NCBI GenBank assembly: GCA_001567485.1
Contig: JZRA01000092.1
Span: 124,001-188,000 of the forward strand
DNA length: 64,000 nucleotides
Source: Chloroflexi bacterium OLB13
GTDB taxonomy: Bacteria; Chloroflexota; Anaerolineae; Aggregatilineales; Phototrophicaceae
Direction of reading: 5' to 3'
The notes below the pieces were generated by a model. It worked only from the letters and a program-made list of their open reading frames with translations. It ran no database searches and had not been told where the DNA came from. A program made the position numbers and the translations under genes. Of the stretch, positions 6,099 through 25,347 are shown piece by piece (position 1 is the stretch's first letter; each line of letters starts with the position of its first letter).

Positions 6099-8749
6099 CT
6101 ACTCGTAACGCAGTGTGTTCATGATGCGCTCGCGCACAGCGACCGATCCACTGGCGTAGGTAGCGAACGCGCCAATCCCGATGGCGACCCCCACCAGAAT
6201 CACCGCAATCGGAACCGCGCTGCGTGGGATAAAGAACGCGTTGTCAAAGCTGAACGTCGTCATCAACCACACCCCCAGCGCGCTCAAGCCGATGCCGAGC
6301 AGCGCGCCGAGCAGACTCACGATGACATTCTCAAGCAGCAGGATGCGCAGCACACGCCCGCCCTTCAGCCCGATTGCGCGCATGACTCCGGTCTGCCGGC
6401 GGCGTTCGAGCGTCGCCAACGCGACAGTGTTGGCCGTTATCACCGCTGCAGCGCCGAGCGACAAGAGTCCGACGAGGATCGGCAGCGCGCTGAACTGGGT
6501 GATGAGCCGCGTCAGGATGCTGTCGAAGAACGAGATATCGAAGGTTAGGACAAGCGGCAGTGTTGACAGGCCGAGCAGCGCATCGTTGAGCTTCTCCGGC
6601 GTGATCTTGGCAAGATTGAACGTAAAGTCGGCATAGCGCGGCGCGATCAAATCGGGTGGCAGCCACAGCCCGCCAAGGCCGCCGGTAGGCGAGGAGTCCG
6701 CGATCCCGACGATCTCGATCGTGAGCGTTTGCCCACCGCCGAGCTGACTGATCGTGAGTCGATCACCCAACTGATACGGTGGCATGTCGCTTTCTGGCGT
6801 GAACTGCGGCTTGGCGTATACAGCGACCAATGCTCCACGGTCAGCCTCCGTCAGCGACCGGCCCGCCGAAATCCCCGGTATCGACCAGTTTGGATCGTCT
6901 GTGTCACGCACAGCGATGTTGACGGTGAGCGAATTCAGCGGGGGCGGCGGCGAGCCATCCGCGCGCTGGAGATTGCGCAGGGTGCCGGTGAACGACATCA
7001 ACCGGGAACGCGATTCGACGCCTTCCAGCGTGTCGAGGCGCGCGTCGATGATCGGCCGCGCAAGCTCTTGCGGCAGCACCGGGAACATCAGCACATTGCC
7101 GCCTAGTGTGTTGGTGAACGAGAACTGGAGGATGTCGCGCACCGATTCGCCGAAGAACGCAATACTGCTCAACGCGAACATGCCCGCGCTCAACGCCAAC
7201 AGCGTGATCGCCGTGCGCATCCGCCGCGTCGTCAAGTCACGCAGCGCCAACCGCAGGTCAACACTCCCGAACGCGGGCAGCTTGCCCACCAACCACACAA
7301 TCACCCACATGATGCAGGCCAGCACGCCGAGGATCAGCAGAGTCACCGCAACGCCTATAACCCCGGCCAGCGGGAACCCAATGATCTGCCCGGCGATCAA
7401 GCCAAGCGCGATCACGATAAACCCGATAGCGGTCAGCCGCGGCAAACATCCTGCCGTGACATTGGAAACGTCATTCGGGCGCAGCACAATCGCAGGTCGA
7501 ACTTTCGCCGCCGACAGCACCGGCAGAATACCGAACACGGCGCTGACGAACACCCCCAGCACGCCGCCGAACAGAATCGCCTCAGGATAGACTTTGAACA
7601 ACAGAGGCTGCTGAATCAGGTCGGAGCCGAAGCGGTTTGCGACGCCGCTCAGCGCCACGCCGAACACCCCCCCGACGAGGCTGCCGAATACGCCGATCCA
7701 GAGCGCTTCGGCGAGGAACATCATCGCCACCTGCCGCCCCTTGAGGCCGAACGTCTTAAGCGCGGCGATCTCCTCGGTGCGCCGGCGCACCAGCACCAGC
7801 ATCGTGTTGATGATGCCTACCCCGCCCAGCAGCATCGCTCCGAGGCCCAGCACCACGATAAAGCGGCCCAACACATCGGAGATCATGGCTGATGCTGCGA
7901 GGATGTCGCTCGGCGTGCGGATTCCACTCACCGTTACGCGGCCGTTGCTGACGATCGGCCAGAGTTCATTTCGGTAGCCGTCGATCTGGTCGAACGGTGT
8001 GCCGTCGGGGAAAAGGACGCCAAGCCGGTTCGGGCCGAGGTTCAAGTCGAGCACTCCATCGACGGCATCGCGGTCAAAGTAGGCAAAACCGAATACCACC
8101 GAAAGCATCTCATTGGACATGAGCTGGAAAAACCCGGCTTGCGCGGCCGTAGGCACGATGCCGCGCACGACGAAGTCTTGATCCGATCCGCTAACGCGCA
8201 CCATGTCACCGACAGAAATCGACTCGCGGTCGGCTAAATTCCGCGAGATGACGACTTCGTTCCCATCACCAGTGAACAATTCGCCGAGAGGCACGCCCGC
8301 GGGGTAATCCGCGAAGACGTCGTTCGTCAGCGGGTAGGATGCGGGGTCGATGAAATACGAGTTGATAAACTGCGGCCTGCCCGCCGTTACAGCGCCGACC
8401 CGCGTTAACTGCGTTCCACTGCTGATGCGGTAGGCGGTGATCTCGCCCCCGCGTTCGGCGGCCCATGTCTCCACACGGCGGATCAAATCCGGCGAGAAGT
8501 TGTTGGAGTTATCCGACGGGTCAGTGAGTGCCGAGAAGAATCGCGCGCCGCTGGCGGATACGGTCAAGTCACCCTTGTTGGTCGCCCGCACGTCGCCGCC
8601 AGCGAGTCGCCGATGGCAAGCCCAAGGCTGCGCAGCGCGACCATCGTCGCTACACCGGCAGCCACGGAGAACACGGCAAACGTAGACCAGCGCCTGCTCC
8701 GCCAGAGGTTGCGCAGCGCATACCCCAGATAGAATCCGATCCGGCCCAT
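6099..8749 (-). CDS. FtsX/MacB-type ABC transporter permease, interrupted by an apparent frameshift
   Basis: This encodes a large ABC permease of the lipoprotein-export / MacB class: an N-terminal membrane helix, an extracytoplasmic MacB-PCD-like domain (about 50-270), then FtsX domains with several helices, with a second copy in the C-terminal half. The frame is broken. The first part (ATG at 8749, MGRIGFYLGYALRNLWRSRR) runs into a stop at 8564, while the rest is open from 8591 in another frame. Restoring one G in the GGCGGCGAC stretch at 8594-8600 gives GDSLAGDVRATNKG and an intact protein of about 883 residues. A strong AGGGGG ribosome site precedes 8749. No ATPase subunit is adjacent. I favour a consensus error over true decay. 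Confidence 0.82.
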
Positions 8750-18814: not shown

Positions 18815-20218
18815 TTAGACGACACTGCTGAACGGCTCGACACGTACATGAGCGCCGAGCCGTCCGTCGAGCATCACGCGAACCTCGCCCCCGTCCGTAA
18901 ACCATCCCGGCGGCCCGCCAACACGTACCGGCTGGCGCAGATCATGCGCAGGCAGTTCGATCAGCCGGTCATCGCCGCCTGAACGCTGCACATGAATTTC
19001 GATATGGTGCGGGTCGTCCCACTCGCCCGGCCAGAACGTGATGAGGACGCCGTCGGCAGTGGGCAGCACGCGATCCACATACGCGCTTCGGCGGAAGAAC
19101 AGCGCGAAGTCCCCCCGCGCAATGATGTGCTGACGCCACTGTTCACGGGTGTTGTCCGTCAATTGATTCTTGAGAGTCTCCGCCTCGGCGTCGCTGCGGC
19201 ACCAGATCAGCTGGAGCGACTCCAGCGTCAAGGGAGATGGCACGAGAACCTGCGCGCGCCGACTGCGCAGCACTTCGTCTTTCTCCGCCGGTTTCGGCGC
19301 TTCGTCGTGATAGATCAACTCAAACGGCAGTTCGGCCAGTGCGCCAGATGTCGCGGATGACCGCTTCACAACCTGCGGGTCGCCAGATGTGAAGCGGGCC
19401 GCAGGCAGGCAAATCGTCGATTCGAGATCGAACAGCAGGCATACCGGCACAGGCAAGCGGTCAGGACTCGGCGTGCCGGGCAGCACCCCTTCGCGGAACC
19501 ACATGTCCGGCGTGCGCGGGCGGAAATTCAGGCCCAACAGCTGATCCTGCGAACGGCGTGATCCCCCCGAACGGGCAGCGGTCAACTTGCCTTGGTTGAG
19601 CACGTTCGCCACAGCCTCGATATCAAGATAGTGAAACAGGAAATACGTCCACCATGACCGGCCACCCAACCACGGTTCGCGCCGGAGTTCGGCAAGGGCA
19701 CGTCTGAACGCAGGCGCATCGCGCTTTTCCGGTACAGACAGCCGCCGCAGTCGTGATGGGCGGAACACAGAGCGCCCCGTCTCCGGCTCGCCATCTCCAC
19801 CCAGCGACGCGAACGCACGCCCGACGTTCAGGTCGCTCAACAAGTCGCGCAGCCGTTCGGCATACTGTGATGGCTGCGAGAAATCGAGCCGGTTAAGGTG
19901 TTCAAGGTGCAGCGGTATCTCTGCGTCGGCCTGCACCAACAGCGGAATGATGCGCTTACCCTTTCGCTGCAATCGCATCTGCTCGGCGCGGCAGTACGTC
20001 GACTGGTACGACTTGTGGCTGCACAACGCCAACCCGACGTCGCAGCTTTCAATCACGCGCTCGATAGTGCGTGCCCAGTTGTCCCCTCCTTGAATATCGG
20101 CGACATCCATCCACGCCGTCAGGCCAGCCGCACGGAGATCGTCACGCAGGCGCAGCGCGAGGGATTTGGCGTCATCACGGGCGTACGAGATGAAGATGCG
20201 GGCGCCGGCCTCGATCAT
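18815..20218 (-). CDS. TIR domain fused to a DarT-like (DUF4433) domain
   Basis: A 467-residue protein with three parts. Residues 1-about 130 are a TIR domain: RIFISYARDD at 7-16, AWMDVADIQGGDNW and CSHKSYQSTYCRAEQ, where E79 sits at the position of the catalytic glutamate of NAD-cleaving TIR domains. Residues about 185-350 resemble DarT, the ssDNA thymidine ADP-ribosyltransferase: LFHYLDIEAVANVLNQGKL, then NFRPRTPDMW at 231-240, FTSGDP at 276-281 and RRAQVLVPSPL at 320-330. In DarT the last motif normally carries the catalytic Glu (AE.LV); here it is Gln323. The loop between the first two motifs is much shorter than in DarT. The last 100 residues are beta-rich and unrecognised. It overlaps the macro-domain gene by 4 bases (ATGA). 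TIR is firm; DarT-like is a moderate call. Confidence 0.78.
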   Translation of the reverse strand: MIEAGARIFISYARDDAKSLALRLRDDLRAAGLTAWMDVADIQGGDNWARTIERVIESCDVGLALCSHKSYQSTYCRAEQMRLQRKGKRIIPLLVQADAEIPLHLEHLNRLDFSQPSQYAERLRDLLSDLNVGRAFASLGGDGEPETGRSVFRPSRLRRLSVPEKRDAPAFRRALAELRREPWLGGRSWWTYFLFHYLDIEAVANVLNQGKLTAARSGGSRRSQDQLLGLNFRPRTPDMWFREGVLPGTPSPDRLPVPVCLLFDLESTICLPAARFTSGDPQVVKRSSATSGALAELPFELIYHDEAPKPAEKDEVLRSRRAQVLVPSPLTLESLQLIWCRSDAEAETLKNQLTDNTREQWRQHIIARGDFALFFRRSAYVDRVLPTADGVLITFWPGEWDDPHHIEIHVQRSGGDDRLIELPAHDLRQPVRVGGPPGWFTDGGEVRVMLDGRLGAHVRVEPFSSVV

Positions 20219-21111
20219 GGCGCGACCTCCACCGTAAGCACCGCCGCGCCTTTGGGTGCGGGCGGAGTGAACAGCAGCGCATCCGATTCCGTACGGCCGT
20301 TCATCGTGCCGCGCACCGTCGACAAATAGCTCAACTGAGTAAGTAAGGGGAACAGGTATGGCGCGGCCGGCTCCATGCCGCCGGTCAGCTGATGCGCGAA
20401 CACGACCCGCGCATGGATCACCTGTGTCCAGAAGTCGTTCAGCACAGCGGACGAAAACGCGAAGGCCGGCCCGCGCTCTGGCGTCAAGACGAGCCGACGC
20501 AGCCTCGCACCCGTCTCTATCGCGGCGCGAAAGGACTCCTCGCTCGCGGTGGTGAACTTGCCGTAGACCGCACGAACCGCGCGGCCAAGATCACGCCAGA
20601 ACTGCTCAAACGGCGGCCGGGAGTACGCATGAGTCACGCGCTGTTCGATCTGCCGGACTCCGCGCCGTTTGTCCGCCGGCTCGCTGTGATGAACGTACAC
20701 CGGGATCGGCAGCGGGTCGAGATAGGTATCGAGCAGCGGGCGCACAACCCCGTCCCAATTCAGCTCCGCGCCGGCGAAACGCGGCAGCGCAAGCGATGGG
20801 ATGGCGAGATCGGGCCAGCGGTCGGCCAGCTTCTGCAGCCCTGCTTCGAGCATATCCGCGGCAGCGGCAGACCGCCAATGCCGCCGAATCGGGAGTGCGA
20901 CGATATCGACGCCGTCCCCACGCAGGTACAACAGCGCTCCCGGCTTCAAGTCACCGACCTCGCACGCCAGTCGATACTGCGCCAACGCGGAAGGAAAAAA
21001 ACGTTTGAAGTCGGCGGCCACCTCGGTGCTGGCCGCGCCTGCCGTGCTGACAGGCATGATCCAGACATCGGCCGGGCTTAAGAACAGGTCAGCATGCAGG
21101 TCAACGAGCAT
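20215..21111 (-). CDS. Divergent macro-domain protein, DarG-like partner
   Basis: A roughly 298-residue protein. Its first 140 residues follow the macro-domain order of DarG antitoxins: DLHADLFLSPADV, a VSTAGAASTEVAADFKRFFP segment, CEVGDLKPG, then LPIRRHWR (about 73-80) where DarG has a PTKxHWR motif, and finally LPRFAGAELNWDGV in place of LGCGLGGLDW. The overall register is convincing, but several ADP-ribose-binding residues are changed, including the catalytic Lys to Arg. The remainder is unrecognised. I choose ATG 21111, which has AGGGG six bases upstream, over GTG 21117, which touches it. It precedes the TIR/DarT-like gene, the usual antitoxin-first order. Confidence 0.7.
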   Translation of the reverse strand: MLVDLHADLFLSPADVWIMPVSTAGAASTEVAADFKRFFPSALAQYRLACEVGDLKPGALLYLRGDGVDIVALPIRRHWRSAAAADMLEAGLQKLADRWPDLAIPSLALPRFAGAELNWDGVVRPLLDTYLDPLPIPVYVHHSEPADKRRGVRQIEQRVTHAYSRPPFEQFWRDLGRAVRAVYGKFTTASEESFRAAIETGARLRRLVLTPERGPAFAFSSAVLNDFWTQVIHARVVFAHQLTGGMEPAAPYLFPLLTQLSYLSTVRGTMNGRTESDALLFTPPAPKGAAVLTVEVAP

Positions 21112-21129
21112 CGTCACCCCCTGCTGAGT

Positions 21130-21222: not shown

Positions 21223-22383
21223 TTAACCGGCGGCTTCGGCCGAATCTTCATCTGCCGGCGGGAAACCGAGGCCGGTCGTGAGGTTGAACATACGCGCGAC
21301 CTGCGCCGCATCCGTCACCGCCGCGACAGTCGGCTCGGTCGTCAGCAGATCGACATCGTAGTTGTGTACGCGCACCGTAGCGACGCGCAGGGTATCCCCG
21401 GCGTCGTTGAGCAGCACAGCGACGGCGCTTTGCGGTTCACCTTCAAGCGTGCGATACGCGTAGGAGACAGCAAAACCACTGCCCCCGTTGCGCTCGACCG
21501 CCTCGACCGTGCGAATCTCCGCATCCGGACGCATCGCTGCGACGAATTCGCGCGCGGCATCCTCATCGGCGATCACCGTGCCTGCGACACTTTCAAGATG
21601 CAGCACGCCCTGCCCCGAGCCTTCGATCGTGACCGGCTCACCGGGGCCGCCATCACGCAGCACCCAGTTGTTCGGGTAGCGAACCACCATGTTGTCTTGC
21701 GCGCTGTAATAGCCGTTCCACTGAACCGGCGTGCCCTCATACAGCGCAACCGGCGTGATCGAAGCCTCGGCCTTTGCCAGCAGGTCGAGGAGCAGCGCAC
21801 GCGCGTTGCTCGGCGTGACCACACGCGTAACATAGATCTTGCCATCACCGGTCAGTTTGGCGACGTGACGCGCGAGATAGGTCTGTGAGCGCAGCATCAG
21901 TTCAAAGTCGATCACCACCGCGTTCTGTTCGGTGTCGAGCGTCCGATCAACTTCCTTCCAACTGTTGTAACGGCTCCATCCACGCTGGAGCGTGTTTTCG
22001 TCGTAGCGTGCGCTCAAGTCCTGCAAGTTAGCAGGCGGCTCGGCCGGGAACTCAATATACGTCTCGATGATGCTGAGGGCCGTGTTGTTCTCGAAGTTGA
22101 CCTGAACCTGTGTCCCGTTGTTCGACGGGCGCGTCGGCTCCCATCCATCCGGATAGTTCACCATATACAGGGCGGACGGGTGCAGATACACGTTGTCGAA
22201 CGTAATGGCCGACAAATCCGCTGGCGGAGGCGGAACGGTCGGCTGGGGGGTAGCCGTCGGTTGAATGGCCTGCTGAGAGGCAGTCTGCGGGGCAAGCGCC
22301 GGCAGAATCGCGGTCAGCCCCATCAGGCCCGCCATAACGATCGCAAAAATAGCGTATGTGCGCTGTCTGCGCCGAGTATCCAT
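21223..22383 (-). CDS. Membrane-anchored extracellular protein, two similar domains
   Basis: A 386-residue protein with a single N-terminal hydrophobic anchor (about 10-31), a short Thr/Pro linker (PTATPQPTVPPPP), then two domains with similar openings: YMVNYPDGWEPTRPS near 73 and MVVRYPNNWVLRDGG near 238. The repeated V-Y-P-x-x-W pattern resembles PsbP/DUF1795-like domains found on cell surfaces. No enzyme motif is visible. It is followed by an intrinsic terminator and diverges from a lipoprotein gene. The function is unknown. Confidence 0.75.
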   Translation of the reverse strand: MDTRRRQRTYAIFAIVMAGLMGLTAILPALAPQTASQQAIQPTATPQPTVPPPPADLSAITFDNVYLHPSALYMVNYPDGWEPTRPSNNGTQVQVNFENNTALSIIETYIEFPAEPPANLQDLSARYDENTLQRGWSRYNSWKEVDRTLDTEQNAVVIDFELMLRSQTYLARHVAKLTGDGKIYVTRVVTPSNARALLLDLLAKAEASITPVALYEGTPVQWNGYYSAQDNMVVRYPNNWVLRDGGPGEPVTIEGSGQGVLHLESVAGTVIADEDAAREFVAAMRPDAEIRTVEAVERNGGSGFAVSYAYRTLEGEPQSAVAVLLNDAGDTLRVATVRVHNYDVDLLTTEPTVAAVTDAAQVARMFNLTTGLGFPPADEDSAEAAG

Positions 22384-23278: not shown

Positions 23279-25347
23279 GTGAGACTCCGCTGGTTGCTCG
23301 TGGCCTGTCTCGTAGTGCTCGCCGCTATGGCGATGCTGCTGCCGCTCAGCGCCCAAACTCCACCACCGATCACCCCGCTGCCGCAGTCAAGTATCCTGTT
23401 GGTGCAGGACGCTTTCGTGCGCGGCGGCCCGGGCGAGTCCCATATCCCCGTCGGGCAAGTCGTCCCCAGCTCCATATTGATCCCCGTGAGCCGTAATGCA
23501 GACGCGACATGGGTACTGCTGCGTTACAACCGTGGCTTTGGCTGGATTCGCCGCGATCTTGTGCTGTGGGCGGTCGACGTGGACGCGCTGCCGGTCATTG
23601 GCCCGAACCTGACACCGACGATCGAACCGGGGCCGCCAACGGCTACTCTGTTCTTCCCGACCAACACGCCGGAAGGCGATTACGTCCACGTTTCAGCGGT
23701 AAGCGCCTATTTGCGCGCAGGCCCGGGCATCACCTATCTGCGCTTGAGCCAAAAATTTCCCGGCGAGTCGCTTGAGCCAGTGGGCCGCAACGAGGAGTCG
23801 TCGTGGATCATGATCCGCAGTGACGACGGTTTCGCATGGATCCGCGCCGACCTCGCCTATTGGACGACCGACCTCGAGTCGCTGCCCGTTTTGAACGAAA
23901 ACCGTTTGACCCCAACGCTGACTTTCACGCCGTCGAACACGGCGACAGCGACCGATACCCCCACCGATACGCCAACCGCAACGCCGACGTTCACGCCCTC
24001 GGACACCGCGACGGCCACGGCGACACCCACCGACACCCCGACGGATACCCCCACGCCGACCGCCACCGACACGGCTACGGTAACACCGACCGATACCGAC
24101 ACAGCCACAGCGACCTCGACGGCGACCGCTACCGCGACCGACTCGCCGTCTGCCACCCATACGGCGACATCCACCGCGACGGATACACCCACGGACATCC
24201 CGTCGGCAACGGCGACGCCAACCGATACGGCGACTTCAACGCCCGATCAAACCCTCACGGCGGCAGCCTCTATCAGTCGGCGCTGCTGCAAACCGTCTCT
24301 GCGATGCCCACGCTGACGGCGACGCCATCCGCCACGGACACCGCCGCTCCGACCGCTACTGACACCGCTTCATCCACACAAACCTCGACGGCCGAACCGA
24401 CGGCCACGGCGACGCCACCGCCCACCGAGACTGCTGCGCCGACGCAAACGTCGACGGCCGAACCGACGGCGACTGCAAGCGCGACGCCCACCGAACAAGC
24501 GTCATCGACTCCGGCCGAGTTGGCGAGCGAGACGCCGCTTCTAACCACGACCACGGACGTCACACGGACGGCTGAACATGCGCTCTCGGTGGGCGAGACC
24601 CAAACGTCTGCTGCGGCCGCTGTCCTGCCCACGGCATCCGATACGCTTGTCCTATCGAAAACACCGACCGAGCCGCCGCCAACGGCAACCGCGACTCCGT
24701 CCGACGTCCCGCCTTCGCCTACGGTCACTGTGACGGGGCCGCCGGCGGAAACCGACACGCCAACGAATCCTCCATCCACAGCAACCGGCGTGACAACAGA
24801 GAGTGCCACGACGCCAGCGCCATCGGACACCCCGGCCCTGACCGAAATCGCCGCAGTCATCACCGTGACGCCGCAGCCTCCGCGCCCGACCGCCGCGCCG
24901 ACCCCGGCGCCGCCTGCCTCTACCGACTCGGGCGGCGTCCGGCCCGAACTGGTGTTGGCGGGTCTGGGCCTGCTGCTCATTGTCGGCTATTTGTGGCTGT
25001 ACTTGCGGGGGGCGGCTACCGCTCATCGCTATGCCGCGGGTTTCGTCATCGACTCGTGTCCGGTGTGCAAGTCAGGACATCTGCACGTCGAAGCGCGCGT
25101 CGAACGTTCGGTGGGCATTCCCAACACGAAACACGTCGTCCGCTGCGATAACTGCCGTTCCGTGTTACGCGAGGTCGGGCGCGACCGCTGGCGTTATGCG
25201 ATAGATCGCGCCGTCAACCCGCGCATGTACGACCGCCTCAACAACCGCGAGCTGCACGAGGCGACGATCAGGCGCTTGGCCGAGCACAGCCCTGATGATA
25301 TGCCCCCCGGCAGCGAGCCGCCGCGAATCGAGGATGACCCCGGATGA
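23279..25347 (+). CDS. Surface protein: SH3-like repeats, Thr/Pro stalk, membrane helix, zinc ribbon (apparent frameshift)
   Basis: The 5' frame (GTG 23279, AGGA seven bases upstream) gives a signal peptide, two bacterial SH3-like domains ([15 protein letters not shown] and [15 protein letters not shown], each ending GWIRRDL or AWIRADL) and a Thr/Pro/Ala/Asp stalk, then a stop at 24316. From about 24290 the stalk continues in another frame ([17 protein letters not shown]) to 25347. That part carries a transmembrane helix ([19 protein letters not shown]) and a cytoplasmic CPVC...CDNC zinc-ribbon-like domain. Adding one base near 24280-24290 yields one 689-residue protein. Alternatively these are two genes, the second starting at ATG 24304, but that would split the stalk from its anchor. 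It probably anchors in the envelope with the SH3 domains outside. Confidence 0.75.
23920..24540 (+). repeat. Thr-Pro/Ala/Asp-rich low-complexity coding repeat
   Basis: About 600 bases of imperfect six-base-like units (ACN-CCN, GCN-ACN, GAY-ACN) encode a TPT/TDT/ATA stalk. Such linkers are frequent on Chloroflexota surface proteins. The repeats also create long meaningless Val/Gly frames on the opposite strand, and they are a natural place for slippage or consensus errors. Confidence 0.8.

What the first reader, a model, noticed from the sequence alone, without database searches (positions are those of the whole stretch)
19240..20900. Matched loss of key active-site residues in the DarT-like and macro domains
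The DarT-type AE.LV motif reads AQVLV (Gln323), and the segment before NFRPRTP that helps bind NAD is much shortened. In the partner, the catalytic-lysine motif PTKxHW reads PIRRHW and the glycine-rich LGCGLGG loop is gone. If both changed together, the DarT/DarG pair may have been turned from enzyme and eraser into a sensor or lock controlling the TIR domain, whose own Glu is kept.
Basis: partly seen in the sequence, partly recalled or inferred. Interest (0 to 1): 0.65.

Follow-up and report, generated by a model that had tools for sequence, protein, structure and literature searches.

The report
TIR enzyme fused to dead DarT
In one family of uncultured Anaerolineae bacteria, a DNA-modifying toxin (DarT) and its antidote appear to have lost their enzyme sites after the toxin was joined to a TIR domain, a type of enzyme that often destroys NAD, which suggests that an old toxin pair was rebuilt as the control part of a new TIR switch.

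Summary
The window holds a minus-strand operon: a DarG-like macro protein (20215-21117), then a TIR-DarT fusion (18815-20218). Gln323 sits at the catalytic Glu position, the NAD-binding segment is short, the macro Lys is Arg78, its glycine loop is gone, and TIR Glu79 is kept.

Homologues show a clade trait. Of 18 TIR-fused DarTs in 154 genomes of the order, 16 have Gln, 2 Val, none Glu; all 16 unfused relatives have Glu. NAD-site residues are eroded in the fused copies. A full-length macro partner of this type exists in 13 of 18 genomes (unlinked in 3): its glycine loop departs from the unfused consensus in 13 of 13, its Lys is kept in 10 of 13, and its C-terminal domain is no longer acidic in 13 of 13. 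TIR Glu is kept in 18 of 18. Two close pairs show low dN/dS, so these are not dying genes.

So the losses go with TIR fusion, but Gln and Arg are not a co-conserved pair, and 5 genomes lack such a partner. Best reading: a pseudo-DarT gates or assembles a TIR effector, with a pseudo-DarG regulator; ligand unknown. The fused genes form one clade, so the association is one event.

The parts
18815..20218 (-). TIR-DarT fusion gene, 467 aa
19808..20206 (-). TIR domain, residues 5-137
   Evidence: TIR_2 2.8e-26; VIA-align Z 18.2 to SPARTA TIR-APAZ 8ifl_A, rmsd 1.7 over 122 residues
19982..19984 (-). TIR Glu79 codon (CRAEQ), kept in 18 of 18 fused
19094..19699 (-). DarT-fold domain, residues about 174-375
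   Evidence: VIA-align Z 16.3, rmsd 3.2 over 181 residues to Thermus DarT 7omw; Foldseek rank 1
19523..19573 (-). shortened NAD-binding segment, residues 216-232
19421..19423 (-). Glu266 of FDLE, invariant in 17 of 17 fused rows aligned, variable in unfused; role unknown
19250..19252 (-). Gln323 codon at the catalytic Glu position
   Evidence: register to the E160A crystal construct
19109..19117 (-). Arg368 and Asp370, each invariant in 17 of 17 fused rows aligned; role unknown
18839..19084 (-). C-terminal beta-rich domain, residues about 379-460, also in unfused relatives
   Evidence: model secondary structure; alignment
20215..21117 (-). DarG-like macro partner gene, 300 aa; likely true start ATG at 21111
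   Evidence: relatives start there
20680..21117 (-). macro domain, residues 1-146
   Evidence: Z 20.2, rmsd 1.8 over 144 residues to Thermus aquaticus DarG macrodomain 5m31
20884..20886 (-). Arg78 codon at the catalytic Lys position
20755..20781 (-). remnant of the glycine-rich ADP-ribose loop, residues 113-121
20269..20670 (-). C-terminal domain of the macro partner, residues about 150-283, net charge +6
20215..20218 (-). ATGA overlap of macro stop and TIR-DarT start

Best explanation
The operon encodes a TIR effector whose second half is a pseudo-DarT: a DarT fold that no longer transfers ADP-ribose and instead senses, gates or assembles the TIR domain. The upstream protein is a pseudo-DarG, a macro protein with a damaged eraser pocket and a C-terminal domain that is no longer acidic, kept as a regulatory partner in most of the clade. 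Shown: domain folds and architecture by model and profile; loss of Glu in all fused copies; erosion of NAD-site residues; altered macro loop; kept TIR Glu; purifying selection in two close pairs. Inferred: that the DarT domain is catalytically dead, that the TIR domain consumes NAD when triggered, that the macro protein binds the fusion, and that the system acts in phage defence. Unknown: the trigger. Single-stranded DNA is the first candidate because it is DarT's substrate and the loop before the Glu strand (read here as the ARTT substrate loop) is more conserved in fused than in unfused proteins.
For: Glu lost 18 of 18 fused, kept 16 of 16 unfused. H13-equivalent kept in 5 of 17 fused, 14 of 14 unfused; N19-equivalent 2 of 17 against 14 of 14; Y71-equivalent 11 of 17 against 14 of 14; the conserved D-x-A-S and T of the NAD segment absent or variable in fused. 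The Pfam DarT profile starts at position 37-62 in the 17 other fused genomes and 88 in the window, but at 1 in 13 of 14 unfused in the order, the other being cut by a contig end. Identity in the first NAD-site stretch: fused 32.2%, unfused 53.6%; in the stretch read as ARTT loop: fused 54.0%, unfused 35.5%; whole: 42.2 and 38.3. Macro 17-site score 3-13 in 10 adjacent partners, 6-10 in 3 unlinked ones, 15-17 in 12 unfused. Macro core to DarT identity ratio 0.98 in fused, 1.56 in unfused. Partner kept in 13 of 18 genomes, in 3 of them unlinked. dN below dS in every part of both close pairs tested. Fused copies form one clade, support 100/97.
Against: No biochemistry. A Glu-to-Gln change does not always kill an ADP-ribosyltransferase (recalled: some PARPs work without the Glu), and DarT1 is active with an NAD loop that lacks the helix and carries an Arg and an Asp (PMC11543638, passages); several fused rows have R-x-D near there. 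Net charge of the fused DarT domains is not more basic than unfused (mean -1.2 against +1.4, p 0.08), which does not favour DNA binding. Five genomes lack a full-length partner of this type. One clade means one event, so fusion and Glu loss have no independent repeat. The locus has no defence-island setting in the window; its neighbours look like housekeeping genes.
Confidence: 0.6

Rival explanations
1. Integrated decoy: the dead DarT copy is bait for phage proteins that bind and block DarT, and their binding releases the TIR domain.
For: A phage-encoded DarG mimic that binds DarT is known (PMC11481870, passages). A decoy needs fold and surface but not catalysis, which fits the kept loops and lost active site. 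Four of 18 fused genomes hold another DarT-family match, one of them broken.
Against: Co-occurrence with another DarT is not significant: 4 of 18 fused genomes against 17 of 136 others, p 0.27. No phage or plasmid record holds a fused relative, which neither helps nor hurts.
Confidence: 0.12
2. The fused DarT is still an enzyme, using Gln and other residues or a changed substrate, and the macro protein erases a different product.
For: The R of FRP and the E of the EG motif are kept in 17 of 17; Gln is itself conserved 16 of 18; macro Lys is kept in 10 of 13 partners; DarT1 works with another NAD loop.
Against: His, Asn and Tyr of the NAD site vary freely in fused copies; E160A and E152A class mutants of DarT2 and DarT1 are inactive (PMC9967889, PMC11543638, PMC11481870 passages); in the window 3 of 17 macro sites remain.
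Confidence: 0.13
3. The macro partner regulates the TIR product: it binds or clears ADP-ribose or cyclic ADP-ribose made by the TIR domain, and the DarT part is only an assembly scaffold.
For: Such a role for macro domains in TIR systems has been predicted (PMC9503650, passages). Two partners keep a G-x-G-x-G loop (L045, L073).
Against: The loop departs from the unfused consensus in 13 of 13 partners and is plainly broken in most; 5 genomes lack the partner.
Confidence: 0.1
4. Neutral decay: a redundant toxin pair that is eroding after the TIR fusion.
For: The window's own macro protein is the most eroded of the 13 (3 of 17 sites). Macro core constraint is relaxed relative to unfused pairs.
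Against: Gln kept in 16 of 18 copies across 13 genera; three fused-specific invariant residues; dN/dS about 0.05-0.2 for TIR, DarT and macro core in two close pairs; intact frames in all 18.
Confidence: 0.05

Closest known systems
DarTG toxin-antitoxin system (DarT2-DarG, DarT1-NADAR)
   Same: Two-gene order macro then DarT in the unfused relatives; DarT and macro folds; ATGA-type coupling; each domain's best solved match is a DarT or DarG.
   Different: TIR domain fused in front; catalytic Glu lost; NAD site eroded; macro pocket altered; partner C-terminal domain not acidic; partner missing or unlinked in 8 of 18 genomes.
SPARTA (short Argonaute with TIR-APAZ)
   Same: A TIR effector joined to a nucleic-acid enzyme fold that has lost its own catalysis (recalled for short Argonautes) and has a partner protein; its TIR is the best structural match (Z 18.2). 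DNA binding activates its TIR by tetramer formation (PMC10474274, abstract and passages).
   Different: No Argonaute or APAZ here; sensor fold is DarT; no guide; trigger not known.
Thoeris and other TIR defence proteins
   Same: TIR domain with the motif Glu kept; weak profile matches to ThsB and to Thoeris ThcB4.
   Different: No ThsA, SLOG or other effector gene beside it; matches are to the TIR part only and far below cut-offs.
Macro-DarT pair on an Agrobacterium plasmid (NZ_CP120216.1)
   Same: Unfused relative outside Chloroflexota with macro then DarT, Glu and PTK kept.
   Different: Not fused; macro C-terminal domain strongly acidic (-13 over 140 residues).

Membership tests
DarT (PF14487) | sequence and fold of the family | tested here: met
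   30 of 30 rows of A1 match PF14487 at E 0.01 or better; the window row alone is under the gathering cut-off (20.3 against 22.5); fold Z 16.3
DarT (PF14487) | catalytic Glu (E160 in DarT2, E152 in DarT1) | tested here: not met
   Q 16, V 2, E 0 of 18 fused
DarT (PF14487) | NAD-binding His, Asn and loop | tested here: not met
   window keeps the His but has Ala for Asn and Asn for Tyr; loop short; clade counts
DarT (PF14487) | ADP-ribosylation of DNA | not testable with these tools
   needs protein
DarG antitoxin | TARG1-like macro fold | tested here: met
   Z 20.2 to 5m31; PADLOC DarG in 20 of 20 rows of A3
DarG antitoxin | catalytic Lys (K80) and glycine-rich loop | tested here: not met
   window Arg78 and loop lost; clade Lys 10 of 13, loop altered 13 of 13
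DarG antitoxin | acidic C-terminal domain that mimics ssDNA | tested here: inconclusive
   net charge 0 to +7 in 13 of 13 fused partners, negative in 12 of 13 unfused; homology of this domain to the solved DarG domain was not shown
NADase TIR domain | TIR fold with catalytic Glu | tested here: met
   Z 18.2; Glu 18 of 18
NADase TIR domain | NAD hydrolysis or cyclisation | not testable with these tools
   needs protein
Functional DarTG toxin-antitoxin system | toxin neutralised by linked antitoxin | tested here: inconclusive
   linked partner in 10 of 18, unlinked in 3, no full-length partner of this type in 5

The most novel reading that the evidence does not exclude
A toxin-antitoxin pair was converted as a whole into the receptor part of a TIR immune switch: the dead toxin fold is the receptor (for phage DNA, or as bait for phage proteins that bind DarT) and the dead antidote, its surface charge reversed, is a dedicated regulator. 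It would be a bacterial case of an enzyme recycled as an integrated sensor for a TIR domain.
Probability: 0.3. Interest if true: 0.8.

Novelty: new variant of a known kind. Interest (0 to 1): 0.6.

Why it matters
If true, it shows how an immune sensor is built: an active toxin is fused to a TIR domain, loses its own enzyme site once, and its antidote is remade rather than thrown away. Unfused relatives, one of them beside the same neighbour gene as the fused loci (L083), allow direct before-and-after experiments. It also warns that DarT and DarG profile matches (PADLOC, Pfam) do not imply an active ADP-ribosylation system.

Tried and rejected
Strict Gln-with-Arg co-conservation: rejected, Arg in only 3 of 13 partners. 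Macro partner simply lost in the 8 loci without one beside the fusion: first thought so; corrected, which finds full-length partners elsewhere in 3 of those 8 genomes (G467, G473, G503); G551's only match there lies beside its unfused DarT, G437, G498 and G546 have only partial macro matches, and G496 has none. The AU test that the then 7 'solo' fusions are not one clade was made before that correction and says nothing about true loss. Another Glu taking over the active site: an acidic residue two before the Gln is present in some rows only. FDLE Glu266 as new catalytic residue: it is invariant in fused rows, but no coordinates were at hand to place it. A guard relation to another DarT in the cell: no significant co-occurrence. 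Viral or plasmid carriers of the fusion: none in phages, none in viral contigs, only unfused relatives in plasmids (one of three looked at). Search of genome contigs gave 18 loci, 18 of 18 with titles of Chloroflexi, Anaerolineae or named groups within them; most are the genomes already held and some are unfused, and the pattern step limits its reach. Structure search did not list a solved DarG C-terminal domain for the partner; absence proves nothing. Fold search rows barely test the C-terminal beta domain of the fusion. Promoter and terminator scans and Rfam gave nothing of use. Literature: searches with DarT, DarG, TIR domain, macro domain; DUF4433 with TIR; TIR-DarT, DarT-like, inactive DarT; TIR, DarT, pseudoenzyme, phage defense showed no paper on a TIR-DarT fusion; the library holds only open PMC papers.

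Limits: alignments depend on MAFFT; starts were taken as the first start codon after a stop, so some N-termini (L069, L079) are probably too long. Counts of 17 fused and 15 unfused come; L088 (cut by contig end) was left out of column counts except the Glu, L084's macro is cut and was left out of the 17-site scores, and the 18th fused and 16th unfused copies (L144, L145) were read but not put in the tables or tree. Net charges are simple counts. Unfused L092 has a +10 C-terminal domain, against the trend.

Full report
What is there. Window 18815-21117 on the minus strand holds two overlapping genes (ATGA). The first, 20215-21117, is a 300-aa macro protein: PADLOC DarG 1.3e-19, NCBIfam DarG 2.6e-17 under its cut-off. 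The second, 18815-20218, is a 467-aa protein with an N-terminal TIR domain (TIR_2 2.8e-26) and a DarT region (4.8e-4). AlphaFold models are good (mean pLDDT 87.6 and 88.1). The TIR part matches the TIR of SPARTA (Z 18.2, rmsd 1.7 over 122 residues), the middle part matches Thermus DarT (Z 16.3, rmsd 3.2 over 181 residues), and the macro domain matches Thermus aquaticus DarG (Z 20.2, rmsd 1.8 over 144 residues).

Observation. The register is secure: a profile of unfused relatives aligns their Glu with the position that is Ala in the Thermus DarT construct 7omv, described in PMC9967889 (passages) as E160A in that series.

Homologues. A search of the 154 genomes held for the order gives 18 TIR-fused copies, all in the window's family and in 13 genera, and 14 unfused copies; two further unfused copies come from the wider phylum sample of 400. 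In the column of the catalytic Glu the fused copies have Gln 16, Val 2, Glu 0 of 18; the unfused have Glu 16 of 16. In the 17 fused and 14 complete unfused rows, the His that binds the adenine ribose is kept in 5 of 17 against 14 of 14, the Asn in 2 of 17 against 14 of 14, the Tyr in 11 of 17 against 14 of 14, and the segment from LLSR to FRP is 16-20 against 35 residues. The roles of these residues come from PMC9967889 and PMC11543638 (passages). The Pfam DarT profile starts only at position 37-62 in the 17 other fused genomes (88 in the window) but at 1 in 13 of 14 unfused copies of the order.

Shift of constraint. Mean pairwise identity in the first NAD-site stretch is 32.2% in fused and 53.6% in unfused; in the stretch before the Glu strand, which I take as the ARTT substrate loop, it is 54.0% and 35.5%; over the whole region 42.2% and 38.3%. 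Glu266, Arg368 and Asp370 are invariant in 17 of 17 fused rows and variable in unfused rows. So the DarT part is conserved for something, but not for holding NAD.

The macro partner. Ten of 18 fused genes have a macro gene beside them. Of the other eight genomes, three hold a full-length partner elsewhere, four have only partial macro matches or one next to an unfused DarT, and one has none. In the 13 full-length partners the Lys is kept in 10 and Arg in 3 (window, L070, L148); the Thr before it is kept in 2; the glycine-rich loop departs from the unfused consensus in all 13, though L045 and L073 keep a G-x-G-x-G pattern. Unfused partners read PTK in 13 of 13. On 17 pocket sites the 10 adjacent partners score 3-13 (window 3), the 3 unlinked ones 6-10, and 12 unfused ones 15-17. 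As a wider control, the macro sequences of 30 loci of the phylum search were printed; reading them by eye, the Lys of the motif is present in the loci outside the fused group, with L012 having PIK and L032 ATK.

Charge of the partner's second domain. DarG is reported to hold DarT with an acidic C-terminal domain that mimics ssDNA (cited in PMC11481870, passages). Here that region is net negative in 12 of 13 unfused partners (L092 is +10) and in 0 of 10 adjacent fused partners (p 0.0007, sequences not independent); the three unlinked fused partners are +1 to +4. An unfused outgroup from an Agrobacterium plasmid is -13. Whether this domain is homologous to the solved DarG domain was not shown. 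If it is, both known antitoxin actions have been given up in the fused clade.

One event. On a tree of 31 DarT rows, made without the trait columns, the 17 fused rows are one clade (100/97). So fusion and Glu loss are linked by one origin and cannot be counted as 17 cases. A neighbour gene (21223-22383 in the window) lies beside eight related loci, seven fused and one unfused (L083), which suggests that the fusion formed at a standing chromosomal site.

Selection. In two close pairs dN is below dS for TIR (0.14/1.23, 0.10/2.01), DarT (0.15/0.77, 0.16/2.21) and macro core (0.22/1.24, 0.11/1.45); the C-terminal domains and the linker change faster. dS values above 1 are rough.

Mechanism. The most likely reading is a TIR effector controlled by a pseudo-DarT, with a pseudo-DarG regulator in most genomes. 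Steps shown by sequence and model are the architecture, the losses and the constraint. Steps inferred are catalytic death, TIR activity, binding between the two proteins, and defence. The trigger is open: DNA is plausible from DarT's ancestry and the conserved loop, but the domain is not more basic than in unfused proteins. The nearest working model is SPARTA, in which target DNA binding makes TIR domains assemble (PMC10474274, abstract and passages).

Against the reading. DarT1 shows that another NAD loop can serve an active enzyme; Gln itself is conserved; several genomes lack the partner; there is no defence-gene setting near the window copy; nothing was tested at the bench.

Novelty. PADLOC, NCBIfam and Pfam have no joint model for it, and four literature searches listed no paper on a TIR-DarT fusion; the library is partial. 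I rate it a new variant of a known kind.

Noticed in passing
L001 1187-1845 (G000 contig C97, about 7600-8190): The window's genome holds a second DarT-DarG remnant: the N-terminal part of a canonical DarT runs by frameshift into the C-terminal half of a DarG macro domain, so it looks broken.
   Followed up: partly
window 21223-22383, minus strand: A 386-aa protein without a confident family match sits upstream of the operon and beside eight related loci, including the unfused L083. Functional link or plain synteny is open.
   Followed up: partly
L113 129-611: On the Agrobacterium plasmid a separate TIR gene lies about 2.5 kb from the unfused macro-DarT pair, a possible unfused version of the same partnership.
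   Followed up: no
L081 and L144: Two fused copies from one genus have Val instead of Gln and no full-length macro partner of the fused type in their genomes.
   Followed up: partly
L078 and L080 macro partners: Long low-complexity tails rich in Pro, Lys, Ser and Asp follow the macro partner's C-terminal domain.
   Followed up: no
L149 2011-3171: G473, a fused-type genome, also carries a canonical single-chain DarT-macro protein with the usual motifs (AEC, PTKKHW, LGCGLG).
   Followed up: no
window 23279-24316 and 23836-25347: Overlapping frames in a Thr/Pro-rich SH3-like protein region suggest a frameshift or assembly error in a repeat stretch.
   Followed up: no
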